DNA of 64,000 bases from Paraburkholderia phytofirmans PsJN (GTDB lineage: Bacteria; Pseudomonadota; Gammaproteobacteria; Burkholderiales; Burkholderiaceae), in assembly GCF_000020125.1 (NCBI RefSeq), contig NC_010681.1, positions 3,782,001-3,846,000 of the forward strand. Reading direction: 5' to 3'. Below, one piece after another: positions 4,056-63,780 of this stretch; within the stretch, counting starts at the first letter, position 1; each line of letters begins with the position of its first letter. The notes beneath the pieces are model-generated. The model saw nothing but the letters and a program-made list of their open reading frames with translations. It was not told the DNA's origin and searched no databases. The translations under genes were made by a program, and so were the position numbers.

Positions 4056-5453
4056 TTACACGACCGCCGCGAGTGCGAAGGTCAAACCCAAGCCCATCAG
4101 TGAAATGATGGTTTCGAGGAGCGACCATGTCTTGAAGGTCTGCCCCACTGTCATACCGAAGTATTCCTTGATCAGCCAGAAACCGCCGTCGTTCACGTGC
4201 GAGAAGATCAGCGAGCCCGAACCGGTGGCGAGCACCAGCAACTCCGGCTCGACATGCACGCCGCTAGCCGAAGCGATCGGCGCGACGATGCCGCATGCGG
4301 TCGTCATGGCGACCGTCGCCGAACCCGTGGCCAGACGAATCAATGCGGCCACCAGCCAGCCGAACAACAGCGGCGACAGATGCATGGCCGTCGCCACATT
4401 GACGATTTCCTTCGAAATGCCGCTATCCATCAGCACGCGCCCGAAACCGCCGCCTGCGCCGACGATCAGCGTAATGCCCGCGATCGGCGCAAGACAGTCG
4501 CCGCAGAATTTCTGAATCTGCTCGCGAGTGAAACCACGGCTCGCGCCGAAGGTCCAGAAGCTCACCAGCACCGCGATCAGCAGCGCGACGTCCGAATTAC
4601 CGGCGAAATGCAGCAGATCGTTCGGCAAGGTTTTCGGCGTGGTGAAGAGATCGGCCCAGCTTCCGACCAGCATCAGAATCACCGGCAGCAGAATCGTGAG
4701 CAGCGTGATGCCGAAGCTCGGCAGTTCGCGCTTAGGTGCTACGTTCTGTGCTGCGGTCTGCGCGCCGTTTTTGGTTTCGTCACCGTGACCCAGGAATTGC
4801 GCGGCGAGCGCGTTCTCTTTCGGCAGCTTGATGTAGCGGCTGATCATCAACGCGAACAGCGGACCCGCGACGATCGCGGTCGGCACACCGACGATCAGCC
4901 CATAAGCGATGGTCCGGCCGATATCCGCGTGATACGCCTGCACCGCGAGCATCGCGGCCGGATGCGGCGGAAGCAGGCCGTGCACGACGGACAGACCCGC
5001 GACCATCGGCAAGCCGACCAGCAGCAACGACTTGTTGGTGCGCTTTGCGACGTTGAAGGCGATCGGAATCAGCAGCACGAAACCGACTTCGAAGAACACC
5101 GGCAAGCCGACAATAATCGCCACGATCATCATCGCCCAGTGGATGTTCTTCTCGCCGAAGAAGTCGATCAACGTGGTGGCGATGCGCTCGGCGCCGCCCG
5201 ATTCGGCCATCATCTTGCCGAGCATCGTGCCGAGACCGACCACGATGGCGATGTGCCCAAGGGTATTGCCGTTACCCGTTTCGAACGATTTGACGATGGT
5301 CGCCATCGGCATGCCGGATGCAAGACCCAGCAGCAGCGACACGATGATCAGAACGAGGAACGGATAGACCTTGTAGCGTGTGATCAGCAGGATCAGCAAT
5401 GCGATGGCGATCACCGCGAAGACCAGCAGCGTGCTGCCGTGGACAGCTTCCAT
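4056..5453 (-). CDS. gntP: Gluconate:H+ symporter, GntP family
   Basis: A 465-aa inner-membrane permease with 12 or more hydrophobic helices. The N-terminus has the GntP-type pattern VFAVIAIALLILLI followed by YPFLVLIIVSLLLGLASGMP, and the protein ends in a hydrophobic helix. Family members import gluconate with protons. It is the first gene of the operon with gntK. Conserved blocks include FFEVGFVLLIPIAF and the glycine-rich LIVGAGGGFGRVL. The exact sugar acid could be a gluconate relative such as 2-keto- or 5-keto-gluconate, but the partner gluconokinase makes gluconate most likely. The upstream 259 bp probably holds its promoter; no clear operator was identified there. Confidence 0.94.
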   Translation of the reverse strand: MEAVHGSTLLVFAVIAIALLILLITRYKVYPFLVLIIVSLLLGLASGMPMATIVKSFETGNGNTLGHIAIVVGLGTMLGKMMAESGGAERIATTLIDFFGEKNIHWAMMIVAIIVGLPVFFEVGFVLLIPIAFNVAKRTNKSLLLVGLPMVAGLSVVHGLLPPHPAAMLAVQAYHADIGRTIAYGLIVGVPTAIVAGPLFALMISRYIKLPKENALAAQFLGHGDETKNGAQTAAQNVAPKRELPSFGITLLTILLPVILMLVGSWADLFTTPKTLPNDLLHFAGNSDVALLIAVLVSFWTFGASRGFTREQIQKFCGDCLAPIAGITLIVGAGGGFGRVLMDSGISKEIVNVATAMHLSPLLFGWLVAALIRLATGSATVAMTTACGIVAPIASASGVHVEPELLVLATGSGSLIFSHVNDGGFWLIKEYFGMTVGQTFKTWSLLETIISLMGLGLTFALAAVV

Positions 5454-10380: not shown

Positions 10381-13300
10381 TTACCACTGGTACGAAGCAC
10401 CCAGGCCCACCGTCGTGCCTTGCGAGCTCGTACCCGCACCGACCTTCATCTTCAAGTTCTCGGTGATACGTGCCGACACGCCGAGCGCGACAGCCTGCGA
10501 ACCCTTGTACGTGCCGCCGCCGACACCGACCGCGATCGTCTTGCCTTGATCGACATCCGGAATCATCGTCAGCGCGGTAGCTGCCGCGATACCTGCGTAG
10601 GCGTTCTTCGCGACCTGGCTGACGCTGTTCTGCACCGAATTGATCTGCTTATCGGTGTAGTCCTTTGCCGTCATGCCGGCCGGCAGATTGCCGAGCGACG
10701 AGCCGATTGCTTCGTTCAACTGGCCGACGTTGACTGCGTCGGTCGTTGCCGTACCGGCTGCCACATTGGTGACCTGGCGTTCGTTGCCCGCCGAGCCGAC
10801 CGACACCGTGTTGTCACGGTCCGCCACCGAACTCGCACCCAGTGCCACCGAGTTGGCCCCGGTCGCCTTCGCGTTCGCGCCCATCGCCGTGGAATGCGTG
10901 CCGCTGGCGACTGCTGCTTCCGTGTCACGGTTGCCGTCTGCTGCGAACATCGGGTTGCTCGCCGCGGTGGCAATGTTCGTGACGGCGGAGATCACCGCGT
11001 TCATCTGGTTGACGTTGACTGCATCGTCACCGGCCGTGCCTGCTGCCACGTTGTGGATCGTCGTACCGCCTGCAGCGCCGTTACCCATCGTGACGCTGTT
11101 GTAGTTGGTCGTACCGTCCGCCTTGCGGTCATAGGTCACGGCAGCATTGGTCGTGCCGTCCGGATTGATCACGCCCGACGCCTTCAACTGCGCGACGTTC
11201 ACCGCATCCGTATCGGCCGTTCCAGCCGCCACGTTGGTGATCTGGCGTTCGTTACCCGCCGAACCGACCGACACGGTGTTGACACGATTAGCCACCGAGT
11301 TCGAACCCAATGCAACCGAGTTCGCCGCCAGCGACTGGGCGTTACCGCCGATCGCTACCGATTCCATGCCCGTCGCCTGCGAATCAGCCAACGAGGAATT
11401 AGCGTGGAAGTATGTGACGCCCGAACCACTGTTGATGTTATTCAGCACGTTGTTGATGTTGCTGATTGCCGTGGTGTTCTGCGTCACGCGACCGTCGATG
11501 TTGGTGATCACCTCACCCACATTGTTGAAGGTCGAGCCACCGGCCACGTACGTCGGCGCCGAAATCGTGCCATCCGGGTTCACCGTCGAACCACCGCCAA
11601 GCGCATCCGCGGTCGACTGGCTCACGCCGTACAGTTGCGAACCGTTCACGGCGTCCACACTCATCGCGTTCACCGCGCCGGCCGTCAAACCCGTCAGAGT
11701 GCGCGTGCCTGCCGTGCCCGTGAAGTCCACCATCGCGCCGTCGGTATCCTTCGCCACCGTGATGTTGCGTGACGTCGAATCCTGCTGCACCAGACCCACC
11801 GAACCGTTGTTGATGTTCGTCGTCAGGTTCTTGATTTCAGTGGTGTTCTGCGTCGTACGGTTATCGATGTTCGTGACCACGTCGCCCACGTTGCTGAACG
11901 TCGAGCCGCCGGCCACGTACGTGGGGTTCGTGATTGTGCCCGTCGTCGTGTTGTAGGTCGACCCGCCGCCCAGCGACGAAGCCGTGCTCGTGCCGATCTG
12001 GTTCACCTTCGCGTCTTCCGACTGCAGTTGGCTCACGTTCACCGCGTCCGTCGCGTTCAGACCCGCTGCGACGTTCGTGAGGCGGCGTTCCTTGCCTGCC
12101 GCGCCGACCGACACTTCACCGCCAGTAGCGGTCGCTGCTGAGATTGCGCTGCCGCCCGGGTTGAAGCCTGCCGTGGTCAGCGTGGTTGAGTTCGCCACCG
12201 AGTTCGAGCCCAATGCCACCGAGTTCGCCGTCGTCGCTGATGCGTTGCCGCCGATTGCTACGGCATCCACGCCCGTTGCCGACGAGTCCGCCAGCGTCGA
12301 GTTCGTGTGGAAATACTTGATGCCGTTGCCACCGTTGGTGATGTTGTTCACCGTGTTGCTGATGTTCGTGACGTTGCCCGCGATGTTGCTGACATTGTTG
12401 CTCAGGTTGTTCACGTTGTTGTTGACCGTGTTCACCTTCGCGTCTTCCGACTGCAACTGGCTCACGTTCACCGCATCCGTCGCGTTAAGACCCGCTGCGA
12501 CGTTTGTCATGCGACGTTCCTTGCCTGCTGCGCCGACCGACACTTCACCGCCGACCGCCGTGGCTGCCGAGATCGCCGTGCCGCCCGCCGGCGTGTAGCC
12601 TGCCGTTGCCAGCGTCGCCGAGTTCGCCACCGAGTTCGAGCCCAGCGCCACTGAGTTCGCCGTCGTCGCCGATGCGTTGCCGCCGATTGCTACGGCATCC
12701 GTACCGGTTGCCGACGAGTCCGACAACGTCGAGTTCGCGTGGAAATACTTGATGCCGTTGCCACCGTTGGTGATGTTGTTCACCGTGTTGCTGATATTCG
12801 TGACATTGCCCGCGATGTTGCTGACGTTGTTGCTCAGGTTGTTCACGTTGTTGTTAACCGTGTTCACCTTCGCGTCTTCCGACTGCAACTGGCTCACGTT
12901 CACCGCGTCCGTTGCGGCCGAGCCGGCTGCAACGTTCGTGATGCGACGTTCCTTGCCTACGGAACCCATCGACACTTCGCCGTTTGCTGCCGAAGCCATA
13001 CCCGACAACGTGCCGCTGCCCGGGTTGTATCCCGCTGCCGACAGGTTCGCCGTCGTCGTCGAGTTCGAGCCCAGCGCCACCGAGTTCGCCGTCGTCGCCG
13101 AAGCATTGCCGCCGATCGCCACCGCATCCGCACCGGTTGCCGACGAGTCCGCCAGCGTCGAGTTCGCGTGGAAATACTTGATGCCGTTGCCACCGTTGGT
13201 GATGTTGTTCACTGTGTTGCTGATATTGGTGACGTTATTGCTCAGGTTCGAAACGTTGTTGCTGACGTTACTGACCTTCGCGTCTTCCGACTGCAACTGG

Positions 13301-16300
13301 CTCACGTTCACTGCATCGGTGCCGTTCAGGCCTGCTGCCACGTTCGTGATGCGACGCTCGCTACCCGACTTGCCCACCGACACTTCACCACCGACCGCCG
13401 TGGCTGCCGAGATCGCGCTGCCACCGGCCGGCGTGAAGCCTGCCGTCGCCAGCGTCGCCGAGTTCGCTACCGAGTTCGAGCCCAGCGCCACCGAGTTCGC
13501 CGTCGTCGCCGATGCGTTGCCGCCGATCGCCACTGCATCCGTACCGGTTGCCGACGAGTCCGCCAGCGTCGAGTTCGCGTGGAAATACTTGATGCCGTTG
13601 CCACCGTTGGTGATGTTGTTCACCGTGTTGCTGATATTCGTGACATTGCCCGCAATGTTGCTGACGTTGTTGCTCAGGTTCGAAACGTTGTTGCTGACGT
13701 TATTGACCTTCGCATCTTCGGACTGCAGCTGGCTCACGTTCACCGCATCCGTCGCGCTCAGGCCCGCTGCGACGTTCGTGATACGGCGTTCCTTGCCTGC
13801 TGCGCCGACCGATACTTCACCACCAGCTGCGGTGGCCGCCGAGATCGCCGTGCCGCCCGCCGGCGTGAAGCCTGCCGTTGCCAGCGTCGCCGAATTCGCC
13901 AGCGAGTTCGAACCCAGCGCCACCGAGTTCGCTGTCGTCGCCGAAGCATTGCCACCGATTGCCACTGCATCCGTACCCATTGCCGACGAGTCCGCCAGCG
14001 TCGAGTTCGCGTGGAAATACTTGATGCCGTTGCCACCGTTGGTGATGTTATTCACCGTGTTGCTGATATTCGTGACATTGCCCGCGATGTTGCTGACGTT
14101 ATTGCTCAGGTTCGAAACGTTGCTGGAAACGTTGTTCACCTTCGCGTCTTCCGACTGCAGTTGGCTCACGTTCACCGCATCGGCGCCGTTCAGGCCCGCT
14201 GCCACGTTCGTGATGCGACGCTCCTTGCCTGCTGCGCCGACCGATACTTCACCACCAGCTGCGGTGGCCGCCGCGATCGCCGTGCCGCCCGCTGGCGTGA
14301 AGCCTGCCGTCGCCAGCGTCGCCGAGTTCGCCACCGAGTTCGAACCCAGTGCTACCGAGTTCGCCGTCGTCGCCGATGCGTTGCCACCGATTGCCACAGC
14401 GTCCGTACCGGTTGCCGACGAGTCCGCCAGTGTCGAGTTCGCGTGGAAATACTTGAGGCCGGAGCCACCGTTGGTGATGTTGTTCACCGTGTTGCTGATG
14501 TTCGTGACGTTGTTGCTCAGGTTCGAAACGTTGTTGCTGACGTTACTGACCTTCGCATCCTCCGACTGCAACTGGCTCACGTTCACCGCATCGGTGCCGT
14601 TCAGGCCCGCTGCCACGTTCGTGATGCGACGCTCCTTGCCTGCTGCGCCGACCGATACTTCACCGCCGACCGCCGTGGCTGCCGAGATCGCCGTGCCGCC
14701 CGCCGGCGTGTAGCCTGCCGTTGCCAGCGTCGCCGAGTTCGCCACCGAGTTCGAGCCCAGCGCCACTGAGTTCGCCGTCGTCGCCGATGCGTTGCCACCA
14801 ATTGCCACTGCATCCGTACCCGTTGCCGACGAGTCCGCCAGCGTCGAGTCCGCGTGGAAGTACTTGATGCCGTTGCCACCGTTGGTGATGTTGTTCACCG
14901 TGTTGCTGATATTCGTGACATTGCCCGCAATGTTGCTGACGTTGTTGCTCAGGTTGTTCACGTTGTTGTTGACCGTGTTCACCTTCGCGTCCTCCGACTG
15001 CAACTGGCTCACGTTCACCGCATCGGTGCCGTTCAGGCCCGCTGCCACGTTCGTGATGCGACGTTCCTTGCCCGCCGCGCCCACCGACACTTCACCACCA
15101 GCAGCGGTCGCTGCCGAGATCGCCGTGCCGCCCGCCGGCGTGAAGCCTGCCGTCGCCAGCGTCGCCGAGTTCGCCACCGAGTTCGAACCCAGCGCCACCG
15201 AGTTCGCCGTCGTCGCCGATGCGTTGCCACCGATCGCCACTGCATCCGTACCGGTTGCCGACGAGTCCGCTAGCGTCGAGTTCGCATGGAAATACTTGAG
15301 GCCAGCACCGTTGGTGATGTTGTTCACCGTGTTGCTGATGTTCGTGACGTTATTGCTCAGGTTCGAAACGTTGTTGCTGACGTTACTGACCTTCGCATCC
15401 TCCGACTGCAACTGGCTCACGTTCACCGCATCGGTGCCGTTCAGGCCCGCTGCCACGTTCGTGATGCGACGCTCGCTACCCGACTTGCCCACCGACACTT
15501 CACCACCGACCGCCGTGGCTGCCGAGATCGCCGTGCCGCCAGCCGGCGTGAAGCCTGCCGTCGCCAGCGTCGCCGAGTTGGCCACCGAGTTCGAACCCAG
15601 TGCTACCGAGTTCGCCGTCGTCGCCGATGCGTTGCCGCCGATTGCTACAGCATCCGTGCCCGTTGCCGACGAATCCGCCAGCGTCGAGTTCGCGTGGAAG
15701 TACTTGATGCCGTTGCCACCGTTGGTGATGTTGTTCACCGTGTTGCTAATATTCGTGACATTGCCCGCAATGTTGCTGACGTTGTTGCTCAGGTTGTTCA
15801 CGTTGTTGTTGACCGTGTTCACCTTCGCGTCCTCCGACTGCAACTGGCTCACGTTCACCGCATCGGTGCCGTTCAGGCCCGCTGCGACGTTCGTGATACG
15901 GCGTTCCTTGCCTGCCGCGCCCACCGACACTTCACCGCCGACCGCCGTGGCTGCCGAGATCGCCGTGCCGCCCGCCGGCGTGTAGCCTGCCGTTGCCAGC
16001 GTCGCCGAGTTCGCCACCGAGTTCGAACCCAGCGCCACCGAGTTCGCCGTCGTCGCCGATGCGTTGCCGCCGATCGCCACTGCATCCGTACCGGTTGCCG
16101 ACGAGTCCGCCAGCGTCGAGTTCGCGTGGAAATACTTGAGGCCAGCACCGTTGGTGATGTTGTTCACCGTGTTGCTGATGTTCGTGACGTTATTGCTCAG
16201 GTTCGAAACGTTGTTCGAAACGTTGTTCACCTTCGCATCTTCCGACTGCAACTGGCTCACGTTCACCGCATCGGTCGCTGCCGAGCCGGCTGCCACGTTC

Positions 16301-19300
16301 GTGATGCGACGCTCCTTGCCTGCCGAACCCACCGACACCTCGCCATTGGCCGCCGATGCCGTGCCCGACAGCGCAGCCGTGCCCGGGTTGTACCCCGCCG
16401 CCGACAGGTTCGCCGTCGTCGTCGAGTTCGAACCGAGTGCCACCGAATTCGCTGCCGTCGCTTTCGCATTGCCGCCGATCGCCACTGCATCTGTGCCCGT
16501 GGCCGACGAATCCGCCAGCGTCGAGTTCGTGTGGAAATACTTGATGCCGTTGCCACCGTTGGTGATGTTGTTCACCGTGTTGCTGATGTTCGTGACATTG
16601 CCCGCGATGTTGCTGACGTTGTTGCTCAGGTTCGAAACGTTGTTCGAAACGTTGTTCACCTTTGCATCTTCCGACTGCAACTGGCTCACGTTCACCGCAT
16701 CCGTCGCGTTAAGACCCGCTGCGACGTTCGTGATACGGCGTTCCTTGCCTGCTGCGCCGATCGACACTTCACCACCAGCCGCGGTCGCTGCCGAGATCGC
16801 CGTGCCGCCGGCCGGCGTGAAGCCTGCCGTTGCCAGCGTCGCCGAATTCGCCAGCGAGTTCGAACCCAGCGCCACCGAGTTCGCTGTCGTCGCCGAAGCA
16901 TTGCCACCGATTGCCACTGCATCCGTACCCGTTGCCGACGAGTCCGCCAGCGTCGAGTTCGCGTGGAAGTACTTGATCCCCGTGCCGCCGTTGGTGATGT
17001 TGTTCACCGTGTTGCTGATGTTGGTGACGTTGCCCGCGATGTTGCTGACATTGTTGCTCAGGTTCGAAACGTTGTTGCTGACGTTATTGACCTTCGCGTC
17101 TTCCGACTGCAGCTGGCTCACGTTCACCGCGTCCGTCGCGTTCAGACCGGCTGCCACGTTCGTGATGCGACGCTCCTTGCCCGCGACACCCACCGACACT
17201 TCACCACCAGCCGCCGTGGCTGCCGAGATCGCCGTGCCGCCCGCCGGCGTGAAGCCTGCCGTTGCCAGCGTCGCCGAGTTCGCCACCGAGTTCGAGCCCA
17301 GCGCCACCGAGTTCGCTGTCGTCGCCGACGCATTGCCACCGATTGCCACTGCATCCGTACCCGTTGCCGACGAGTCCGCCAGTGTCGAGTTCGCGTGGAA
17401 GTACTTGATGCCAGCACCGTTGGTGATGTTGTTCACCGTGTTGCTGATGTTCGTGACGTTGCCCGCAATGCTCGTCACGTTGTTGCTCAGGTTGTTCACG
17501 TTGTTGTTGACCGTGTTCACCTTCGCATCTTCCGACTGCAACTGGCTCACGTTCACCGCATCGGTCGCTGCCGAGCCGGCTGCCACGTTCGTGATGCGAC
17601 GCTCCTTGCCTGCCGAACCCACCGACACCTCGCCGTTGGCCGCCGATGCCGTGCCCGACAGCGCAGCCGTGCCCGGGTTGTAGCCCGCTGCCGACAGGTT
17701 CGCCGTCGTCGTCGAGTTCGAACCGAGTGCCACCGAATTCGCTGCCGTCGCTTTCGCATTGCCGCCGATCGCCACTGCATCCGTACCGGTTGCCGACGAG
17801 TCCGCCAGCGTCGAATTCGTGTGGAAATACTTGATGCCCGTACCACCGTTGGTGATGTTGTTCACCGTGTTGCTGATGTTCGTGACATTACCCGCGATGT
17901 TGCTGACGTTATTGCTCAGGTTCGAAACGTTGTTGGAAACGTTGTTCACCTTCGCGTCCTCCGATTGCAGCTGGCTCACGTTCACCGCATCGGTCGTATT
18001 CAGACCGGCCGCCACGTTCGTGATGCGACGCTCTGCACCTGCCGAACCCACAGACACTTCACCACCAGCCGCGGTCGCTGCCGAGATCGCGGTGCCGCCA
18101 GCCGGCGCGAAGCCCGCCGTCGCCAGCGTGGTCGAGTTCGCTACCGAACTCGCGCCCAGTGCCACCGAGTTCGCCGCCGCCGCGATCGCGCCATTACCTA
18201 CCGCCACGGCCGAACCGGCGTTTGCCATGGAATAGCTGCCAATGGCCAGCGAATTGAAGCCAGTCGCCGTCGAAAAGCCACCTACAGCAGATGCATGTGC
18301 GGCGGTCGCCAGCGCGCCGGTGCCCACTGCAAGGGCGTCATAGTTTGAAGATGTTGCATTGAAGCCCAACGCAGTATTCTGGCCCCAAGCTCCCGCGACT
18401 GTCACCGCGTATGCGCCTTGGCCAATGGCGATTCCCTGTCCATTCGACATCCCATGATTACCGGCCTGAGCGCCGGTACCCATTGCTATTGAATTACCCA
18501 GGTTCGTGGTTGCGCCGGTGCCTATCGCGATCGAGTTACCCGAGCTTGCCATAGCTGCGTTCGTTTCGGCGCTCGCTCCCACTCCGATTGCGATATCGCC
18601 CGCATTACCTGATGCTGCGGCCGGACCAACTGCTATCGAATCTGTGCCCGTTGCCGATGAGTCCGCCAGCGTCGAGTTCGCGTGGAAATACCTGATGCCG
18701 CCACCGTTAGTGATGTTGCTCAGGATGTTAGAGACGTTAGTGACCTTCGCATCTTCCGACTGCAACTGGCTGACGTTCACTGCATCCGTTGCTGCCGAGC
18801 CGGCTGCCACGTTCGTGATGCGACGCTCCTTGCCTGCCGAACCCACCGACACCTCGCCATTGGCCGCCGATGCCGTGCCCGACAGCGCAGCCGTACCCGG
18901 GTTGTAGCCCGCCGCCGACAGGTTCGCCGTCGTCGTCGAGTTCGAACCGAGTGCCACCGAATTCGCTGCCGTCGCTTTCGCATTGCCGCCGATCGCCACT
19001 GCATCTGTGCCCGTGGCCGACGAATCCGCCAGCGTCGAGTTCGTGTGGAAATACTTGATGCCGTTGCCACCGTTGGTGATGTTGTTCACCGTATTGCTGA
19101 TGTTCGTGACATTACCCGCGATGTTGCTGACGTTATTGCTCAGGTTCGAAACGTTGTTCGAAACGTTGTTCACCTTTGCATCTTCCGACTGCAACTGGCT
19201 CACGTTCACCGCATCCGTCGCGTTCAGACCCGCTGCGACGTTTGTGATGCGACGCTCGCCACCCGAGGTGCCCATCGACACTTCGCCCGCAGCCGTGGCG

Positions 19301-21288
19301 GCCGAAATCGCCGTGCCGCCCACCGGCGTGAAACCTGCCGTTCCCAACGTTGCCGAATTTGCAACCGACTTGTAGCCCAATGCAACCGAGTTATTCGTCG
19401 AAGCGCTAGCGCCTTGCCCAACCGCTGTCGAGTTTGTGCCAGTCGCAGATGTGAACGCACCAACGGCCGTCGCCTGGTCGCCAGTTGCGCGAGCCTGCGA
19501 GCCCAACGCCGAGGAGTAGTTGCCCGAAGCCGTGGACCAGGCGCCAATCGCGTCAGTGGACCAGTTCGTCGCGGTCGCACTCGCGCCGAGCGCCAATGCT
19601 TGTGAAGACGTCGCGCCAGAGTTGCCCGCAACTGCGCTGGAGCCGATGGCAACGTTCGCGCCATACGCCACAGAGTTGCCGCCGTATGCGGTGGAATTAG
19701 CGCCAATGGCTATCGCACCGGCGCCGTTGCCCGCGCCTGCCCCAGTGGTTGCATTTAGACCCATCGCGATATCGTTCGCCATGGCTGTGGTTGCTAACGG
19801 ACCTATTGCAACGCTGTTGACGCCGACCGCCGACGAATCCGCCAGCGTCGAGTTCGTGTGGAAATACTTGATGCCGTTGCCGCCATTGGTGATGTTGTTC
19901 ACCGTGTTGCTGATGTTCGTGACGTTGCCCGCAATGTTCGTCACGTTGTTGCTCAGGTTGTTCACGTTGTTGTTAACCGTGTTCACCTTCGCATCTTCCG
20001 ACTGCAGTTGGCTCACGTTCACCGCATCGGTCGCGTTCAGGCCCGCTGCAACGTTTGTGATACGGCGTTCCTTGCCTGCTGCGCCGACCGATACTTCACC
20101 GCCGACCGCCGTGGCTGCCGAGATCGCGCTGCCGCCCGCCGGCGTAAAGCCTGCCGTTGCCAGCGTCGCCGAGTTTGCTACCGAGCTCGCGCCCAGTGCC
20201 ACCGAGTTCGCCGTCGTCGCGCTCGCGGCCTGGCCGATGGCGGTTGCCGAAGCGGCTGACGCGGTCGCTGCATCGCCCAGTGCCACTGATCTGATACCGC
20301 TCGCCAGCGCCCTGCCGCCCAACGCCTGCGAAAAGTCCGCCGTCGCGGTGGACAGATACCCGAGCGCTACAGAATTGGCGCCGGATACGTTAGCGAGATA
20401 GCCCACACCCGTGGAGTTGGCCCCAGAGGCAGTGGCGCTGTAACCCATCGCCTCACCATAGTTGCCCGACGCCAAGGCCCCGCCGCCCACAGCGGCGGAG
20501 CCGGTACCCGTCGCGGAGGCTTGGGTACCGAGTGCGGTTGCCCATGTACCTGCGCCCGAAGCCGTTGTCGAGGCACCGAGCGCAATGTCGCCCACGCCGC
20601 TAGCGACTGCGAGGTTACCCATCGCCTGACTGTAGTTGCCCAATGCTTGAGCGGTGGTGCCCATCGCGATCGAGCTCGTACCCGTAACGGTACTGGCACC
20701 CCCTATTGCGACGCCGCCGGCCTGGCTAACCAACGAGTTCTCACCGATGGCGATAGCGTAGCCTGTAGCACCGGTGCTTCCATTCGAAGCTGGTGTGGCG
20801 TGCGCGTTGCCGCCGATGGCGATGCTTGTGCCGTACGACGCGGAGGAATTGGCGCCGATGGCAATCAGATCTATGGAGTTCGCAAGACTGCCGCCGTTGA
20901 TACTGGCGTTGTAGCCAATAGCCACGCTGTTCTTAGCACCGTTGATATTGGAAAACCCGCCCACAGCCGTGTTTCCAGACGACATGGCGGTACCAGTGGC
21001 GGTGTCGACAACGGAGTTGTACCCGATTGCCGTGTCATAGCTGCCGCCTGGGCTGGTCGCGTTGCCTGTGATCGCGCCGGTGCCGTAGGCGATCTGTCCT
21101 GTACCTGTATTCACGGTACCGCCATCCAACGCGCCAGCATGAGCCTGCAGCGCAGTAGCGCCAGCCACAAGCGCCATGGCCAGCGCTTTCCCGCTGCTCG
21201 TTTTCTTCCCGCGCGCCTTCGCTGTTTCCGACGCTGCCACATAAGTACCTGTGGTTTCGTTCCAGACCGATTTATAAGACTTATTCAC
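10381..21288 (-). CDS. Giant trimeric autotransporter adhesin (YadA/Hia type)
   Basis: A 3635-aa trimeric autotransporter. The GTG at 21288 opens an extended signal peptide region (VNKSYKSVWNETTGTYVAAS) with a hydrophobic core ending near AHAGA; the frame reaches 21375 but the family motif fixes this start. Residues about 60-400 are YadA-like head repeats of the AIG/VALG-x-S-A type. From about 400 to 3070 come 18 necks of the ERRITNVAAG...DAVNVSQL type joined by Asn/Ser-rich coiled-coil stalks and KYFHANSTLADSSATGTDAV modules. Two modules near the N-terminus carry longer heads. About 3080-3540 has diverged necks and paired GGGST-YVAGGSTF segments; the last ~90 residues are the YadA membrane anchor ending in SYQW. 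No internal stop was found. The likely role is adhesion or aggregation. Confidence 0.95.
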   Translation of the reverse strand: MNKSYKSVWNETTGTYVAASETAKARGKKTSSGKALAMALVAGATALQAHAGALDGGTVNTGTGQIAYGTGAITGNATSPGGSYDTAIGYNSVVDTATGTAMSSGNTAVGGFSNINGAKNSVAIGYNASINGGSLANSIDLIAIGANSSASYGTSIAIGGNAHATPASNGSTGATGYAIAIGENSLVSQAGGVAIGGASTVTGTSSIAMGTTAQALGNYSQAMGNLAVASGVGDIALGASTTASGAGTWATALGTQASATGTGSAAVGGGALASGNYGEAMGYSATASGANSTGVGYLANVSGANSVALGYLSTATADFSQALGGRALASGIRSVALGDAATASAASATAIGQAASATTANSVALGASSVANSATLATAGFTPAGGSAISAATAVGGEVSVGAAGKERRITNVAAGLNATDAVNVSQLQSEDAKVNTVNNNVNNLSNNVTNIAGNVTNISNTVNNITNGGNGIKYFHTNSTLADSSAVGVNSVAIGPLATTAMANDIAMGLNATTGAGAGNGAGAIAIGANSTAYGGNSVAYGANVAIGSSAVAGNSGATSSQALALGASATATNWSTDAIGAWSTASGNYSSALGSQARATGDQATAVGAFTSATGTNSTAVGQGASASTNNSVALGYKSVANSATLGTAGFTPVGGTAISAATAAGEVSMGTSGGERRITNVAAGLNATDAVNVSQLQSEDAKVNNVSNNVSNLSNNVSNIAGNVTNISNTVNNITNGGNGIKYFHTNSTLADSSATGTDAVAIGGNAKATAANSVALGSNSTTTANLSAAGYNPGTAALSGTASAANGEVSVGSAGKERRITNVAAGSAATDAVNVSQLQSEDAKVTNVSNILSNITNGGGIRYFHANSTLADSSATGTDSIAVGPAAASGNAGDIAIGVGASAETNAAMASSGNSIAIGTGATTNLGNSIAMGTGAQAGNHGMSNGQGIAIGQGAYAVTVAGAWGQNTALGFNATSSNYDALAVGTGALATAAHASAVGGFSTATGFNSLAIGSYSMANAGSAVAVGNGAIAAAANSVALGASSVANSTTLATAGFAPAGGTAISAATAAGGEVSVGSAGAERRITNVAAGLNTTDAVNVSQLQSEDAKVNNVSNNVSNLSNNVSNIAGNVTNISNTVNNITNGGTGIKYFHTNSTLADSSATGTDAVAIGGNAKATAANSVALGSNSTTTANLSAAGYNPGTAALSGTASAANGEVSVGSAGKERRITNVAAGSAATDAVNVSQLQSEDAKVNTVNNNVNNLSNNVTSIAGNVTNISNTVNNITNGAGIKYFHANSTLADSSATGTDAVAIGGNASATTANSVALGSNSVANSATLATAGFTPAGGTAISAATAAGGEVSVGVAGKERRITNVAAGLNATDAVNVSQLQSEDAKVNNVSNNVSNLSNNVSNIAGNVTNISNTVNNITNGGTGIKYFHANSTLADSSATGTDAVAIGGNASATTANSVALGSNSLANSATLATAGFTPAGGTAISAATAAGGEVSIGAAGKERRITNVAAGLNATDAVNVSQLQSEDAKVNNVSNNVSNLSNNVSNIAGNVTNISNTVNNITNGGNGIKYFHTNSTLADSSATGTDAVAIGGNAKATAANSVALGSNSTTTANLSAAGYNPGTAALSGTASAANGEVSVGSAGKERRITNVAAGSAATDAVNVSQLQSEDAKVNNVSNNVSNLSNNVTNISNTVNNITNGAGLKYFHANSTLADSSATGTDAVAIGGNASATTANSVALGSNSVANSATLATAGYTPAGGTAISAATAVGGEVSVGAAGKERRITNVAAGLNGTDAVNVSQLQSEDAKVNTVNNNVNNLSNNVSNIAGNVTNISNTVNNITNGGNGIKYFHANSTLADSSATGTDAVAIGGNASATTANSVALGSNSVANSATLATAGFTPAGGTAISAATAVGGEVSVGKSGSERRITNVAAGLNGTDAVNVSQLQSEDAKVSNVSNNVSNLSNNVTNISNTVNNITNGAGLKYFHANSTLADSSATGTDAVAIGGNASATTANSVALGSNSVANSATLATAGFTPAGGTAISAATAAGGEVSVGAAGKERRITNVAAGLNGTDAVNVSQLQSEDAKVNTVNNNVNNLSNNVSNIAGNVTNISNTVNNITNGGNGIKYFHADSTLADSSATGTDAVAIGGNASATTANSVALGSNSVANSATLATAGYTPAGGTAISAATAVGGEVSVGAAGKERRITNVAAGLNGTDAVNVSQLQSEDAKVSNVSNNVSNLSNNVTNISNTVNNITNGGSGLKYFHANSTLADSSATGTDAVAIGGNASATTANSVALGSNSVANSATLATAGFTPAGGTAIAAATAAGGEVSVGAAGKERRITNVAAGLNGADAVNVSQLQSEDAKVNNVSSNVSNLSNNVSNIAGNVTNISNTVNNITNGGNGIKYFHANSTLADSSAMGTDAVAIGGNASATTANSVALGSNSLANSATLATAGFTPAGGTAISAATAAGGEVSVGAAGKERRITNVAAGLSATDAVNVSQLQSEDAKVNNVSNNVSNLSNNVSNIAGNVTNISNTVNNITNGGNGIKYFHANSTLADSSATGTDAVAIGGNASATTANSVALGSNSVANSATLATAGFTPAGGSAISAATAVGGEVSVGKSGSERRITNVAAGLNGTDAVNVSQLQSEDAKVSNVSNNVSNLSNNVTNISNTVNNITNGGNGIKYFHANSTLADSSATGADAVAIGGNASATTANSVALGSNSTTTANLSAAGYNPGSGTLSGMASAANGEVSMGSVGKERRITNVAAGSAATDAVNVSQLQSEDAKVNTVNNNVNNLSNNVSNIAGNVTNISNTVNNITNGGNGIKYFHANSTLSDSSATGTDAVAIGGNASATTANSVALGSNSVANSATLATAGYTPAGGTAISAATAVGGEVSVGAAGKERRMTNVAAGLNATDAVNVSQLQSEDAKVNTVNNNVNNLSNNVSNIAGNVTNISNTVNNITNGGNGIKYFHTNSTLADSSATGVDAVAIGGNASATTANSVALGSNSVANSTTLTTAGFNPGGSAISAATATGGEVSVGAAGKERRLTNVAAGLNATDAVNVSQLQSEDAKVNQIGTSTASSLGGGSTYNTTTGTITNPTYVAGGSTFSNVGDVVTNIDNRTTQNTTEIKNLTTNINNGSVGLVQQDSTSRNITVAKDTDGAMVDFTGTAGTRTLTGLTAGAVNAMSVDAVNGSQLYGVSQSTADALGGGSTVNPDGTISAPTYVAGGSTFNNVGEVITNIDGRVTQNTTAISNINNVLNNINSGSGVTYFHANSSLADSQATGMESVAIGGNAQSLAANSVALGSNSVANRVNTVSVGSAGNERQITNVAAGTADTDAVNVAQLKASGVINPDGTTNAAVTYDRKADGTTNYNSVTMGNGAAGGTTIHNVAAGTAGDDAVNVNQMNAVISAVTNIATAASNPMFAADGNRDTEAAVASGTHSTAMGANAKATGANSVALGASSVADRDNTVSVGSAGNERQVTNVAAGTATTDAVNVGQLNEAIGSSLGNLPAGMTAKDYTDKQINSVQNSVSQVAKNAYAGIAAATALTMIPDVDQGKTIAVGVGGGTYKGSQAVALGVSARITENLKMKVGAGTSSQGTTVGLGASYQW
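12000..20130 (-). repeat. Tandem neck-stalk-head repeats inside the adhesin gene
   Basis: Successive copies of the KYFHANS-coding segment start near 12297, 12728, 13157, 13567, 14000, 14432, 14844, 15277, 15685, 16117, 16528, 16961, 17389 and 17812, a spacing of 408-433 bp. The interval then widens where long head modules interrupt the array (18673, 19036 and 19848). Units differ by whether the stalk holds an extra SNIAGNV heptad and by the head end (TPAGGTAISAATA versus NPGTAALSGTASA). Copies are nearly identical at DNA level, including many third positions. Confidence 0.9.
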
Positions 21289-21675
21289 GTTCCAAATTCC
21301 AAAAAAAATTTCTGAACTCACCTGGCACAAGCCACGCGAAGAACTTTCGATGTCAGAGGTTCGGAAAGGAATCACGCGAGAACAATCGGGAGACCAACAT
21401 CACGAAGCGCTATCTCATTAACCCTCTGACGATGACGTAAATCTAAATTTCAGAAGGACCGAACTAAATAAGATGAATCCGAAACGGCCTGAAATGTACG
21501 GAAATCGCCCAAGACAAGCGAGATGGCATGGATTTAAAGCGAGGAATGTTCTACGTATCTTTGGGAATATTCTTGGCACCCCCCGTTAACTAAGAAAAGT
21601 CTTATTTTTCTTGGTAGCTCCACCAATCAAACTAAGAAATTAAACGTTAAGCGCGGTATGAAAGGAGCGGCTGAA
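21289..21675. promoter_or_regulatory. AT-rich divergent regulatory region of the adhesin
   Basis: This 387-bp gap is clearly richer in A and T than its surroundings and separates the adhesin from a divergent small gene. It holds an AT-rich inverted repeat at 21590-21614 (CTAAGAAAA...TTTTCTTGG). It probably carries both promoters; I could not place -35/-10 pairs with confidence. AT-rich adhesin promoters are often silenced by H-NS-like proteins (inference). Confidence 0.45.
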
Positions 21676-22116
21676 ATGAGAAAGCACTGTCTTGCAATAG
21701 TTTGGGGATTGGCGATGATTGGCTCTCACGCCCTTGCCCAGCCGAAGTCCGACGAGGACGTCATCACGGCAATGGAGCAAACGTGGGTCCGCGCAACGGC
21801 AGTCGGCGACAAGGAAACGGTGAGGGAACTGTTGGACGACAGCTATATCGAGCGCACCCCTACCGGCGCAACGCGCACCAAGGAGGATGTGCTGCAAGCG
21901 CCGCCGCCATCCATGACGTCCACTCAAGATCTGGACGACCTGATTGTCGTGGTTCGCGGAGATACCGCATCCGTGACCGGCACCAACAGGTATCGCGCCG
22001 CACCGGGCGTAACGCCGGTGGATTACGTGTTCGTCGATGCGTTTCAGAAACGTGAGGGTGTTTGGCGAATTGTCAGATCACAGATGGCCCGACGCGGTGG
22101 CGAATTGTCAAAGTAA
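21676..22116 (+). CDS. Secreted NTF2-like (DUF4440/SnoaL type) protein
   Basis: A 146-aa protein with a signal peptide (MRKHCLAIVWGLAMIGSHALA, cut near residue 21) and a compact alpha+beta domain. The pattern of a helix with EQTWVRATAVGD, then LLDDSYIERTPTGATRTKED, then strands ending in VWRIVRSQMAR is that of the DUF4440/SnoaL branch of NTF2-like folds. Function is unknown; relatives act as binding or isomerase scaffolds. The ATG at 21676 has AGGAG eight bases upstream; an earlier in-frame ATG at 21658 lies before that SD and is less likely. It is divergent from the adhesin gene, with no evidence of joint function. Confidence 0.8.
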   Translation: MRKHCLAIVWGLAMIGSHALAQPKSDEDVITAMEQTWVRATAVGDKETVRELLDDSYIERTPTGATRTKEDVLQAPPPSMTSTQDLDDLIVVVRGDTASVTGTNRYRAAPGVTPVDYVFVDAFQKREGVWRIVRSQMARRGGELSK

Positions 22117-22263
22117 CATCGCCAGCATAAAAGACGCCGTGATCGCAATTTGGACCGGTGCATAGCTTCGCATCCACGGGCGATCAAGACGAGGTTGTGG
22201 GATTTTTTTCTATGCCTGGCCCCGGTGCGGTTTCCCGCGCAGTTTCTTGGTAACCCGGCAAGA

Positions 22264-22291
22264 GGGCGGCTCGCCAACCGGCAAACCGCCC
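22264..22291 (-). terminator. Displaced copy of the hemJ terminator hairpin
   Basis: The stem GGGCGGCTCGCC-aacc-GGCAAACCGCCC pairs with G-U wobbles when read on the minus strand. It resembles the hairpin at 23327-23354 after hemJ and stands beside a second copy of the hemJ 3' end. The surrounding 22117-22535 holds no gene. Confidence 0.45.
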
Positions 22292-22349
22292 TTCCTCTGT
22301 AAAACAAATTGGAATCGAGCTATCAAACTGCGCAAAACCCAAAGCTCAG

Positions 22350-22381
22350 AACGGCTTGATCACCATCAACGCCACCGCCGC
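22350..22381 (-). repeat. Direct repeat: second copy of the hemJ 3' end (left)
   Basis: This 32-bp segment matches 23382-23413 at 30 of 32 positions. Read on the minus strand with its flanks it encodes LLAAVALMVIKPF and a stop, while hemJ ends MLAAVALVVIKPF. Homology stops abruptly upstream. The pair flanks about 1 kb and looks like the attL/attR footprint of an element inserted at the hemJ 3' end. Confidence 0.6.
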
Positions 22382-22443
22382 GAGCAGGCGTGGGCATGTC
22401 ATCCGTTGTAGAACGAGGCGCACATGGGGGCGGCACATAAGCG

Positions 22444-22496
22444 CGCACGCAACGTGCGGTATCGCCAAGTCCGAAGAGCCCTGATTCGATCGAATC
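22444..22496. repeat. Two short palindromes in the hemJ-flanked insert
   Basis: CGCACG-caa-CGTGCG (22444-22458) and the perfect 14-bp palindrome GATTCGATCGAATC (22483-22496) lie after the 145-aa gene. They may be a weak terminator and a protein site; nothing more is visible. Confidence 0.35.
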
Positions 22497-22535
22497 GCGT
22501 CTCTTCTTAGTTGCCGCAACGTATCTAAGCCCCTC

Positions 22536-22973
22536 TCAGTGCGAAGCCACAGCCAACGCGGGATCGGTTTTGCGTTCCGCCGGTTTGCGCGTCATCGCCG
22601 CACTTCTTGCAGAACCTGCCTCTTGCTTTTGCGCACCTGCAAGCAGTTTCGCCGCACCGCCAGCCGTAATCCGTCGATGAGCAATCCCACGCGCATCGAG
22701 CGCGATCACTTGATACAACTCGCGGTCGCATTCGACTTCCCGCTCATACTCCTCGCACGTTTCAACCAGCAACTCGAGCAGCACTTGACGGCTGCGTCGT
22801 TCGTGGTTCGTCAGTGCAGGATTCCTATATATCGAGGTCGCAAGTGTGGCCAGTCTGTTGAGTTGAGTCAGTTGTCGTTCGCACGAACCGAATGCCGACA
22901 TGGCGAGTTTTTCGTACTGCAAGGCATCGACTGGCGGACGTGAGGCGGGTTGCTTTTTGTTGGACTTGCTCAT
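22536..22973 (-). CDS. Unrecognised 145-aa protein inside the hemJ-flanked insert
   Basis: I do not recognise the family. The protein has a Lys/Gln/Pro-rich start (MSKSNKKQPASRPPVD), a central helical part (about residues 17-95; ERQLTQLNRLATLATSIYRN and LLVETCEEYEREVECD, likely amphipathic) and a basic, disordered tail. There is no signal peptide or membrane helix, so it is probably cytosolic. A GGGAGA Shine-Dalgarno sequence stands seven bases before the ATG, and codon use is normal for a gene. It follows a ~240-nt leader with a long inverted repeat and a TATAAT box, an arrangement recalling C4-type antisense control of phage genes. It and the leader lie between direct repeats of the hemJ 3' end. 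Confidence 0.7.
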   Translation of the reverse strand: MSKSNKKQPASRPPVDALQYEKLAMSAFGSCERQLTQLNRLATLATSIYRNPALTNHERRSRQVLLELLVETCEEYEREVECDRELYQVIALDARGIAHRRITAGGAAKLLAGAQKQEAGSARSAAMTRKPAERKTDPALAVASH

Positions 22974-23215
22974 GGTGCGATCTCCCTAAAACTTACCTGG
23001 ATCGCCCGACACTCGCTTGCAAAGAGGGTGAGCGGGCATGTAGCGAAGTTGACAGACCGGGCTTGAAACAATCCGGCGAGCCTTGCGGCTCCTCCACCAC
23101 AGCCCGCCCATAGAAAATACAGACGTGCAGAGATAGACGCACGACCCGCCTGGGCGGGTGTGCGGTTTCAAGCGCGGGCTGTCAAACCCGACCACCGGTT
23201 GGTGCCGATGGTGCG
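22974..23215 (-). ncRNA. Structured leader, possible C4-like antisense RNA
   Basis: Reading from the -10 box at 23224 toward the 145-aa gene there are several structures: a hairpin around ACCAACCGGTGGT, a strong GC hairpin at 23138-23164 (CGCA..ACCCGCC/GGCGGGT..TGCG), a GAGCC/GGCTC hairpin at 23078-23091, and two 21-base segments (23165-23185 and 23049-23069) complementary at 19 of 21 positions. In phage P1/P7 C4 and satellite P4 CI, a short RNA made upstream on the same strand pairs with the leader of the gene it silences; this layout is similar. A 69-codon frame runs through it (22986-23195) but reads like by-product sequence. Confidence 0.4.
23049..23185. repeat. Long inverted repeat in the 145-aa gene leader
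   Basis: TTGACAGACCGGGCTTGAAAC at 23049-23069 is complementary to 23165-23185 at 19 of 21 bases, with 95 bases between that hold two further hairpins. Confidence 0.85.
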
Positions 23216-23218
23216 GAA

Positions 23219-23224
23219 ATTATA
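23219..23224 (-). promoter_or_regulatory. -10 box for the structured leader
   Basis: A consensus TATAAT on the minus strand, placed just before the long inverted repeat. No matching -35 is seen at 16-18 bp. Predicted transcription begins near 23211. Confidence 0.5.
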
Positions 23225-23326
23225 AATCACCCCGCACGTGCATCGGCCGTCCCAATATAGGCTGGCAAGCGAACTAGCCATTCGGCCTAGAACGCCGCAT
23301 CGCGCCCCAGCGCCGCCCATAAAAAA

Positions 23327-23354
23327 GGCGGTTTGCCGAACCCGGCAAACCGCC
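23327..23354. terminator. Intrinsic terminator of hemJ
   Basis: GGCGGTTTGCC-gaacc-CGGCAAACCGCC forms a long perfect stem; on the minus strand it is followed by TTTTTTAT. It lies 24 bp after the hemJ stop. The interval 23225-23326 holds nothing else recognised. Confidence 0.85.
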
Positions 23355-23377
23355 TTCTATAAAATCAAAACCCCATC

Positions 23378-23794
23378 CTAAAACGGCTTAATCACCACCA
23401 ACGCCACCGCCGCCAACATCCCCAGCACCGGCAGTTCATTAAACATCCGATACCACTTATCCGAGCGACGATTCTCTCCCCGCTCGAACGTCCGCAGCAG
23501 CACACCGCAATAAGCGTGGTAAATCAAAAGCAGCACCACCACGCCGACCTTGGCATGAATCCACCCCTGCCCGCGCCCAATCCCGATCACCAGCCACAAC
23601 CACAACCCACAAGCCAGCGCCGGCACCGCAATAAACGTCATGAACCGGAACAGCTTACGCGCCATCGTCAGCAGACGCGCCGTCGCCGCGGGTTCCGTTT
23701 CCATCGCCAGATTGACGAAGATGCGCGGCAAATAGAACAGGCCGGCGAACCATGAAGCAATCAGAACGATGTGAAACGTCTTTACCCAAAGCAT
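23378..23794 (-). CDS. hemJ: HemJ-type protoporphyrinogen IX oxidase
   Basis: A 138-aa integral membrane protein with four predicted helices. HemJ oxidises protoporphyrinogen IX to protoporphyrin IX in heme synthesis. The family markers are present: an N-terminal histidine in KTFHIVLIASWFAGLFYLPR (H8) and the lysine-containing segment HAKVGVVVLLLIYHAYCG. The related CopD superfamily is the alternative label, but length and motifs fit HemJ. proA ends 15 bp upstream, so they are likely co-transcribed. The last 13 codons and the terminator have a diverged second copy at 22264-22386, which suggests that an element once inserted into this 3' end. Confidence 0.9.
   Translation of the reverse strand: MLWVKTFHIVLIASWFAGLFYLPRIFVNLAMETEPAATARLLTMARKLFRFMTFIAVPALACGLWLWLVIGIGRGQGWIHAKVGVVVLLLIYHAYCGVLLRTFERGENRRSDKWYRMFNELPVLGMLAAVALVVIKPF
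23382..23413 (-). repeat. Direct repeat: functional hemJ 3' end (right)
   Basis: This is the partner of 22350-22381 (30 of 32 identical). The differences are synonymous or conservative codon changes, as expected if an element brought its own version of the gene end. Confidence 0.6.
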
Positions 23795-63358: not shown

Positions 63359-63419
63359 TTTGGGCTGGCGCGGGGTTTTGGGGCTGTGTTCTGTCGGTGG
63401 TTGGCCTTTCCTTGAATTC

Positions 63420-63780
63420 CACGGTGGTCTATTGGCGCTGCCCCTGTGCGGGGCGGCACCTACTTTCTTTGCCGCGGCAAAGAAAGTAGGCAAAGAAAGC
63501 CGCTTCACACCGCCAGCTCATAAGCGGCTCCCTCGGCTTGGAGGGGGCAGTGGTCCATCTGGAATCTGTGTTCTCGCACATTCGGCGCGAGTGACAAGGC
63601 CGTCATACTTCCCGCCTCACGCTGCGCGCTCGCCGGAAGGGTCTGCTTCCATCAGTGGTTTTTTTGTTTGCGGTGGGCCGTGGGCTTTGCCTCGGCGCGG
63701 CGCTGAAGTGCCGGCGCTTAACAAGCGGTCGCTTGAAATTTGGATGGTCAACGAGCGTGGCAAGGTTTTGTCGCCACACC
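63420..63780. repeat. Dispersed Burkholderia-type repeat with 32-bp perfect palindrome
   Basis: At 63459-63490 lies a perfect 32-bp palindrome, arms CCTACTTTCTTTGCCG and its complement, with no spacer. The context (gcgctgcccc before, and an AAAGAAAG direct repeat after) is of a kind I recall from many Burkholderia/Paraburkholderia genomes, often misread as small genes. Limits are approximate. The rest of 63089-64000, including the last 220 bp, shows no supported gene. Confidence 0.6.

What the first reader, a model, noticed from the sequence alone, without database searches (positions are those of the whole stretch)
22350..23413. A ~1-kb element footprint flanked by direct repeats of the hemJ 3' end
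A 32-bp segment encoding the last hemJ codons occurs at both 22350-22381 and 23382-23413 (30/32 identical), each next to a similar hairpin. The left copy translates as LLAAVALMVIKPF plus stop, the right as MLAAVALVVIKPF. This is how integrative elements look after inserting into a gene 3' end and restoring it. Between the copies are only a structured leader and one unknown gene, with no integrase, so this could be a minimal satellite moved in trans or a decayed remnant.
Basis: partly seen in the sequence, partly recalled or inferred. Interest (0 to 1): 0.72.

Follow-up and report, generated by a model that had tools for sequence, protein, structure and literature searches.

The report
Antisense-RNA-controlled gene beside hemJ
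The stretch between the two hemJ-end copies is probably not a trapped mobile element but one of several resident gene units in this soil bacterium, each apparently switched by its own private phage-type antisense RNA, while the extra hemJ end looks like the edge of a small piece of foreign DNA.

Summary
The repeat is real (30/32; E=1.7e-7 within the genome), but its copies do not look like the ends of an element. The host is a Paraburkholderia. Between the copies lies a resident unit: TATAAT-like box, a1/b1-like target, C4 antisense RNA (RF01695, 62.8 bits, cut-off 45), a 145-aa gene of unknown function, a hairpin. At hemJ the unit occurs in 10 of 94 genomes examined; the other nine have no second hemJ end in the 2.3-10.8 kb scanned. 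The gene core is under purifying selection (dN/dS 0.04-0.11), so it is no decayed remnant. DNA without a counterpart in 143 congeners lies outside the repeats, to the left (21640-22345). The left copy is 34/42 to its own hemJ; 55 of 93 genomes score higher (best 39). I read it as the edge of a recombined foreign tract; no donor was found. The unexpected result: related units recur (five here), target and antisense covary in cis (302/315 pairs; maximum 260 in 5000 shuffles), and a target pairs best with its own antisense in 24 of 25 units of four genomes: private codes, as in phage heteroimmunity. Regulation and protein function are untested.

The parts
23378..23794 (-). hemJ (138 aa, UPF0093); its functional 3' end is the right repeat copy
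   Evidence: Pfam PF03653 E=4.4e-40; a match in 144 of 144 genus genomes
23367..23418 (-). right copy of the repeat (hemJ 3' end)
   Evidence: its 42-nt hemJ end equals that of G008
23320..23361 (-). hemJ terminator-like hairpin
   Evidence: inverted repeat I4; a similar hairpin after hemJ in several relatives with the unit and in some without (G081, G076, by eye)
23219..23224 (-). TATAAT-like box just upstream of the target; a -10 by position only
   Evidence: sequence and conserved TTTATAAT in the unit alignment; the sigma-70 pattern scan found no promoter
23165..23185 (-). antisense target in the leader (a1/b1 or seqA-like), complementary to 23049-23069
   Evidence: inverted repeat I3, 21 nt, 90%; RF03163 at 23171-23225, 26.6 bits, below its cut-off of 46.7; cis covariation
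23124..23143 (-). terminator-like hairpin between target and C4; its 5' arm (GTGC) can also close the preceding hairpin, so the two exclude each other
   Evidence: 3 terminator-like sites found, shuffles 2.3 on average; stem pairs in 126 of 128 cells over 32 units
23024..23115 (-). C4 antisense RNA; pairing segment 23049-23069
   Evidence: RF01695, 62.8 bits, cut-off 45, E=5.2e-11; 5 copies in the genome, all over the cut-off
22536..22973 (-). 145-aa gene controlled by the leader (inferred); predicted helical, function unknown
   Evidence: no Pfam or NCBIfam family; 391 proteins at E<=0.001; dN/dS 0.041-0.105; AlphaFold helices 17-50, 56-95, 104-126, mean pLDDT 69.7
22463..22516 (-). hairpin after the gene, probable terminator of the unit
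   Evidence: inverted repeat I1; a similar sequence at the same place in several of nine relatives (by eye)
22387..22465 (+). possible remnant of the 3' end of the DUF4440 gene that follows the unit in relatives (weak)
   Evidence: alignment to G008 reached by 0 of 300 mononucleotide shuffles but by 1.7% of 20000 dinucleotide shuffles; the best of 9 relatives tested
22335..22386 (-). left copy: a second hemJ 3' end, not like the native one
22263..22293 (-). hairpin after the left copy, similar to hemJ terminators
21640..22345 (.). DNA with no DNA-level counterpart in 143 congeners, holding the part downstream of the left copy and a divergent DUF4440 gene; I take it and the left copy as one foreign tract
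   Evidence: short matches only (25-38 nt, best E 7.3e-5) in 17 of 143 other genus genomes, none in the rest
21658..22116 (+). DUF4440 gene (152 aa), divergent allele
   Evidence: Pfam PF14534 E=4.8e-16; two other proteins at E<=0.001, both from short JGI contigs; 33-58% identity in tblastn matches after hemJ in relatives

Best explanation
Two unrelated things lie side by side. (1) 22463-23225 is a resident transcription unit of a Paraburkholderia family. A leader carries a target; a C4-type antisense RNA lies in the same leader; then comes a gene for a small helical protein. Proposed mechanism, by analogy with P4 CI/seqA, P1 C4 and Gifsy IsrK: transcription starts upstream of the target; polymerase stops at the hairpin between target and C4 or reads through; C4, released from read-through RNA, pairs with the target of later transcripts and promotes stopping (or blocks translation), so the gene stays low until C4 is titrated or lost. 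Each unit has its own target/antisense code, so co-resident units are largely insulated from one another. Shown computationally: C4 family match, cis complementarity, compensatory covariation, own-pair preference, purifying selection. Inferred: transcription start, processing, attenuation, switch signal, protein function. (2) The second hemJ 3' end is the right edge of a tract of about 1 kb (DUF4440 and flanks) that this strain took up from an unsampled relative by recombination, joined just left of the unit (inferred).
For: C4: RF01695 62.8 bits, cut-off 45; 5 of 5 own hits over the cut-off, 0 of 14 control genomes; 101 of 144 genus genomes. The 145-aa gene: 73 of 144; its five own places lie next to the five C4 hits. 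Covariation: 35 units extracted, 31 complete, 27 of these with 15/15 pairs; 21 distinct combinations give 302/315 pairs in cis, shuffled mean 233, maximum 260 of 5000. Own-pair preference: own duplex is the row minimum in 24 of 25 units of four genomes; 26 loci tried, one gave no hit. Selection: dN/dS 0.041-0.105 against five hemJ-site orthologs. No tblastn match in 50,697 phage or 72,556 plasmid records, none confirmed in an IMG/VR pattern scan. Foreign tract: 143 other congeners lack 21640-22345 at DNA level, while the 6446-8317 gene region matches in 7 of 7 and adhesin-like sequence in 6 of 7 relatives compared (not G099) and hemJ in all 144; the left hemJ end is 34/42 to its own hemJ, with 55 of 93 genomes higher (G034 39); 9 of 9 other genomes with the unit at hemJ show no second end.
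Against: No expression data. The a1/b1 model scores below its cut-off and no full promoter was found. Terminator-like hairpins are no more frequent than in shuffles (3 against 2.3, sd 1.5), and the mutually exclusive hairpins are too conserved for covariation to test them. Four of 35 units were incomplete at the pairing columns and four of the 31 complete ones pair at 10-13 of 15 (L012, whose target an insertion removed, L018, L029, L187). By column the own pair is the minimum in 22 of 25; in G000 only in 3 of 5, so cross-pairing is not excluded. C4 hits exceed gene hits in some genomes (G004: 9 and 0), so C4 is not tied to this protein. Foreign tract: no donor was found; the left hemJ end is only 42 nt, and unit carriers of the same site also score higher than the native end (for example G127 38, G122 37), so origin within the clade is possible; the DUF4440-remnant test is weak.
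Confidence: 0.66

Rival explanations
1. Integrative element footprint: an element with its own hemJ 3' end inserted into hemJ, restored it and displaced the original end to the left; 22387-23366 is the cargo.
For: Direct repeat in the right orientation, each copy followed by a terminator-like hairpin; genomes without the unit at hemJ exist (83 of 94, 16 of them with hemJ next to DUF4440).
Against: Nine other genomes have the unit at hemJ without a second hemJ end in the scanned stretch. The restored end should be foreign and the displaced one native; the right end equals that of G008 and the left is less native. No integrase seen between the repeats. The other own units lie in intergenic sites after different genes.
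Confidence: 0.1
2. Relic of a tandem duplication: hemJ 3' end, terminator and DUF4440 were duplicated long ago (two DUF4440 genes stand in tandem in several relatives) and only this lineage kept the second hemJ end.
For: Tandem DUF4440 matches in G095, G122, G105, G125, G089, G094 and G116; the left end sits beside a DUF4440 gene; some unit carriers have hemJ ends near the left copy (G127 38/42, G122 37/42).
Against: No hemJ end between the tandem DUF4440 genes in these seven (best 23/42); a 42-nt untranslated relic would hardly stay so close to functional hemJ ends; the neighbouring sequence has no DNA-level counterpart in the genus.
Confidence: 0.24
3. The C4 units are non-autonomous mobile cassettes still moving, and the hemJ copy is one recent landing.
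For: Five dispersed copies in the own genome, presence/absence at the hemJ and hemY-like sites, some units bracketed by inverted copies of a 250-bp repeat; an IS256-like transposase frame beside one own unit (L231) and a tyrosine-integrase-like frame about 5 kb from another (L230, by eye).
Against: The hemJ and hemY-like units are shared at matching places by several species, with 0.3-0.7 synonymous changes per site at hemJ, so they are old there; the window unit has no such flanking repeats (only window match 63400-63636).
Confidence: 0.2
4. The leader-C4 complementarity is only a long intramolecular hairpin of one mRNA leader (for example a thermometer or protein-binding leader), not an antisense RNA acting between molecules.
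For: Target and C4 lie on one transcript about 100 nt apart, and folding of the single leader forms the long hairpin.
Against: The C4 part alone matches the C4 family, whose phage members act as antisense RNAs (passages); the terminator-like hairpin lies between the two partners.
Confidence: 0.2

Closest known systems
C4 antisense RNA of phages P1/P7 (RF01695) and its a1/b1 targets (RF03163)
   Same: C4 family match over the cut-off; complementary target; specificity carried by a few bases and heteroimmunity of P1/P7 (passages of PMC12197685, and PMC5320573)
   Different: chromosomal, several copies per genome; controls an unrelated small helical protein instead of icd/ant (icd name recalled)
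P4 CI RNA / seqA-seqC immunity
   Same: target before the antisense RNA, terminator-like hairpin between them; P4 CI causes premature termination by pairing with seqA and seqC (passage in PMC4825925)
   Different: I recognised no second target (seqC) downstream, but made no systematic search; no replication gene or satellite genome seen
Gifsy-1 isrK-orf45-anrP locus with STnc1160
   Same: short leader RNA ending at a terminator, read-through transcript with a stable complementary RNA downstream (passages of PMC4825925); the isrK model matches the window weakly (21.4 bits, cut-off 50)
   Different: prophage locus driving an antirepressor; in that study the short IsrK activates translation, whereas I propose repression by C4
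Acinetobacter baumannii Group 1 C4-like sRNAs
   Same: many C4-like RNAs in one genome with variable specificity loops (abstract and passages of PMC5320573)
   Different: in the passages seen, mRNA targets are not established (two antisense sRNAs are reported); here each C4 has a cis target and a downstream gene of one family

Membership tests
Integrative element at a gene 3' end | direct repeats of the gene 3' end at both ends | tested here: met
Integrative element at a gene 3' end | integrase or recombination module inside | tested here: not met
   between the repeats the ORF list shows only the 145-aa gene and short overlapping frames (by eye)
Integrative element at a gene 3' end | repeats coincide with the inserted unit in other carriers | tested here: not met
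   9 of 9 other genomes with the unit at hemJ: best second end 21-26 of 42
Integrative element at a gene 3' end | displaced end native, restored end foreign | tested here: not met
   right end equals G008's; left end 34/42 to own hemJ, 55 of 93 genomes higher; only 42 nt compared
Integrative element at a gene 3' end | excised circle | not testable with these tools
   needs PCR or reads
C4 antisense RNA | match over the Rfam gathering score | tested here: met
   62.8 bits, cut-off 45
C4 antisense RNA | a1/b1 target upstream recognised by its model | tested here: inconclusive
   RF03163 26.6 bits, cut-off 46.7
C4 antisense RNA | antisense segment complementary to the target, with compensatory change | tested here: met
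   302/315 pairs in cis, at most 260 in 5000 shuffles; 24 of 25 row minima
C4 antisense RNA | RNase P processing and trans action | not testable with these tools
   needs RNA-seq and reporters
P4-like satellite or P1-like immunity locus | controls phage genes within a phage or satellite | tested here: not met
   protein: no Pfam family at E<=1, best PHROG E=0.11, no phage or plasmid match, no confirmed IMG/VR match; no phage structural genes noticed by eye, though L230 has an integrase-like frame about 5 kb from its unit
P4-like satellite or P1-like immunity locus | antisense-controlled termination or translation block | not tested
   only anatomy compatible with it

The most novel reading that the evidence does not exclude
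Paraburkholderia chromosomes carry a multi-copy family of domesticated, immunity-type RNA switches: each unit couples a C4 antisense RNA to its own leader target and a conserved small protein gene, and the codes of co-resident units have diverged by compensatory change so that each unit is privately controlled. This would be a natural set of largely insulated antisense/target pairs evolving outside phages, with code turnover even between units at matching sites (hemJ; hemY-like site in G000 and G007).
Probability: 0.5. Interest if true: 0.68.

Novelty: new variant of a known kind. Interest (0 to 1): 0.45.

Why it matters
C4-type RNAs set the immunity specificity of P1, P7 and P4, and C4-like RNAs had been predicted in Burkholderiales and seen as many orphan sRNAs in Acinetobacter, but in the passages I saw none was tied to a resident gene family with matched targets. 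Here the partners can be read off for many units, and the covariation makes it directly testable whether antisense codes diversify to avoid cross-talk. It also corrects a lead: a repeated gene 3' end need not mean an integrative element.

Tried and rejected
Rejected or down-weighted: site-specific integration footprint; recent duplication of the own hemJ end (the left copy is nearer to 55 of 93 genomes' ends than to the native one); the weak match at C3:2628824 as a third hemJ end (looks like a transporter gene); a phage home of the protein.

Led nowhere: structure searches with the helical model (no match at E<=0.001 in BFVD or PDB); NCBIfam and Pfam for the protein; a donor for the DUF4440 tract (398 family genomes, 144 genus genomes); a named-genome scan (3 loci). 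A regex extraction of the pairing segments missed 12 of 26 loci and mis-hit L232; the profile extraction replaces it. An off-by-one comparison of hemJ ends is replaced. The remnant test looked strong against mononucleotide shuffles and weak against dinucleotide shuffles; I rely on the weak value.

Not done: 50 of 144 hemJ downstream regions were not fetched; no tree was built; C4-bearing leaders without the 145-aa gene and a second target downstream of C4 were not searched for.
Full report
WHAT WAS CLAIMED AND WHAT IS THERE. The repeat is real: 52 nt at 22335-22386 and 23367-23418, 79% identical with a 30/32 core, E=1.7e-7 within the 8.2-Mb genome. Each copy is followed by a similar hairpin. 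The genome is a Paraburkholderia, judged from the named carriers of its proteins.

THE SEGMENT BETWEEN THE COPIES. On the minus strand it reads: TATAAT-like box (23224-23219), target (23185-23165), two overlapping hairpins of which the second is terminator-like (23143-23124), C4 antisense RNA (23115-23024; RF01695, 62.8 bits against a cut-off of 45), a 145-aa gene (22973-22536) and a hairpin. The C4 target model RF03163 (26.6 bits) and isrK (21.4 bits) match below their cut-offs. The protein has no Pfam or NCBIfam family and 391 homologs at E<=0.001; of the 120 listed, those given with an organism are hypothetical or uncharacterized proteins of Paraburkholderia or Burkholderia strains. It has no match in phage or plasmid records and none confirmed in IMG/VR, where only two peptide patterns were scanned. 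AlphaFold gives long helices with a low-confidence tail (mean pLDDT 69.7); no structural match reached E<=0.001.

THE UNIT IS OLD AND SELECTED. Gene relatives: 73 of 144 genus genomes, up to 11 copies; in a sample of 299 family genomes 16 had one, 15 of this genus and one of another. C4: 101 of 144, up to 11 copies. The own genome has five of each, side by side. Against five hemJ-site orthologs the 112-codon core has dN/dS 0.041-0.105; against the four own paralogs 0.10-0.25, with synonymous sites near saturation. The other own copies sit in intergenic places: after a hemC-hemD-hemX-hemY-like operon (with an integrase-like frame about 5 kb away), beside a phosphodiesterase-like gene, beside an IS256-like transposase, and beside an acetyltransferase-like gene (names by eye, not by a family search).

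PRIVATE CODES. From the fetched loci 35 units with the gene were extracted; 31 are complete at the 15 pairing columns (27 of them 15/15; L012 10, L187 11, L018 and L029 13), with 21 distinct target/C4 combinations. Over these 21, 302 of 315 positions pair in cis; with C4 parts dealt out at random the mean is 233 and the maximum of 5000 is 260. Three positions show all four Watson-Crick types. For four genomes I took 26 unit loci (5 of 5 from G000, 8 of 10 from G018, 8 of 8 from G009, 5 of 6 from G007); 25 gave a profile hit. The duplex of a target with its own C4 was the most stable of its row in 24 of 25 (5/5, 7/8, 8/8, 4/4; about 4 expected by chance). By column the counts were 3/5, 7/8, 8/8, 4/4, so two C4s in G000 bind the hemJ unit's target about as well as their own. 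Codes also change between units at matching places, with compensation (hemJ site; hemY-like site in G000 and G007). Caveats: energies are from a simple duplex model, and related sequences are not independent.

THE hemJ SITE. All 144 genus genomes have a hemJ match. I have the downstream region of 94 (2.3-10.8 kb). In 10 the unit follows hemJ, and in 9 of these a DUF4440 match follows the unit (G000, G007, G008, G026, G095, G121, G122, G127, G142; none detected in G099); G024 has a fragment; 16 have DUF4440 within about 150 bp of hemJ and no unit. In G026 and G008 the unit is interrupted by insertions of about 1.4 and 7.6 kb with transposase-like, and with reverse-transcriptase-like and recombinase-like frames (by eye). 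Best second hemJ end: G000 34/42, G021 33/42 (part of a second, broken hemJ-like copy), then 28 or less; 21-26 in the nine other unit carriers. So the unit probably came to this site once or a few times and the second hemJ end later, in this lineage (inferred; no tree was built).

WHERE THE FOREIGN DNA IS. The stretch 21640-22345, outside the repeats, has no DNA-level counterpart in the 143 other congeners beyond 25-38-nt words. Farther left the gene region 6446-8317 matches in 7 of 7 relatives compared and adhesin-like sequence in 6 of 7 (not G099). Its DUF4440 protein has two relatives at E<=0.001 besides itself, both on short JGI contigs, and 33-58% identity in tblastn matches at this locus in relatives. 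The left hemJ end, CTGCTC...TTCTGA, is 34/42 to its own hemJ; of 93 genomes 55 score higher, 17 others equal, 20 lower; best is G034 with 39; among unit carriers G127 has 38 and G122 37. I conclude that the left copy is the right-hand edge of a recombined tract from a donor in which hemJ and DUF4440 are neighbours, as in 16 of the 94; but 42 nt is little, no donor was found, and an origin within the clade is not excluded. A remnant of the native DUF4440 just right of the junction (22387-22465) is suggested by an alignment to G008 but is weak (1.7% of dinucleotide shuffles, best of nine relatives).

MECHANISM. From papers seen as passages: P4 CI RNA, processed from a primary untranslated transcript, causes termination by pairing with seqA upstream and seqC downstream (PMC4825925); IsrK is a structural homolog of SeqA, and a stable RNA (STnc1160) is thought to arise from isrK read-through, although there short IsrK activates translation in trans; C4 gives P1/P7 heteroimmunity (review, PMC12197685) and is matured by RNase P (PMC5320573). 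The anatomy here fits this scheme: target, terminator-like hairpin, C4, gene. The GTGC arm is shared by two hairpins that exclude each other (124 of 128 and 126 of 128 cells paired over 32 units), which would allow an attenuator. None of this is shown experimentally.

KNOWN AND NEW. C4 RNAs in Burkholderiales were predicted in 2010 (Weinberg et al., PMC2864571: table entry seen; the Burkholderiales statement is from PMC5320573), and a Mycetohabitans paper mentions C4 hits on chromids (PMC12696581, one passage). Searches for 'C4 antisense RNA' (17 papers, 15 listed), the same with Burkholderia (4 papers), and (13; 12, 10 listed; 3; 594, 8 listed) showed no paper on a C4-controlled resident gene family in Paraburkholderia, judged from titles and abstract starts; this covers open-licence papers only.

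VERDICT. Observation confirmed; element reading not upheld; the unit itself looks like a C4-type switch on a resident orphan gene, worth a bench test.

Noticed in passing
window 63400-63636 and L232 about 4530-4760: A dispersed repeat of about 250 bp (sub-threshold match to Rfam Bp1_684, 37.1 bits, cut-off 44); the query spanning it has 24-70 matches per genome in 12 relatives; inverted copies bracket several C4 units, including the own one that begins just beyond the window's right end (L231).
   Followed up: partly
G004, G085 (whole genomes): More C4 hits than copies of the 145-aa gene (G004: 9 and 0; G085: 8 and 2), so C4 leaders may control other genes too.
   Followed up: no
L230 (own genome C3:1206000-1217000): Another own unit lies directly after a hemC-hemD-hemX-hemY-like operon and is shared at that place by several of 12 relatives searched, so two of five own units sit beside heme genes; may be coincidence.
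   Followed up: partly
window 10381-21375: A 3664-aa repetitive protein that looks like a YadA-type trimeric autotransporter adhesin (NCBIfam matches all below their cut-offs), beside the DUF4440 gene.
   Followed up: no
L155 (G021): A second, broken hemJ-like copy directly downstream of hemJ.
   Followed up: no
L046, L047, L083, L095, L097, L098, L099: Two DUF4440 matches in tandem after hemJ or after the C4 unit in seven relatives.
   Followed up: partly
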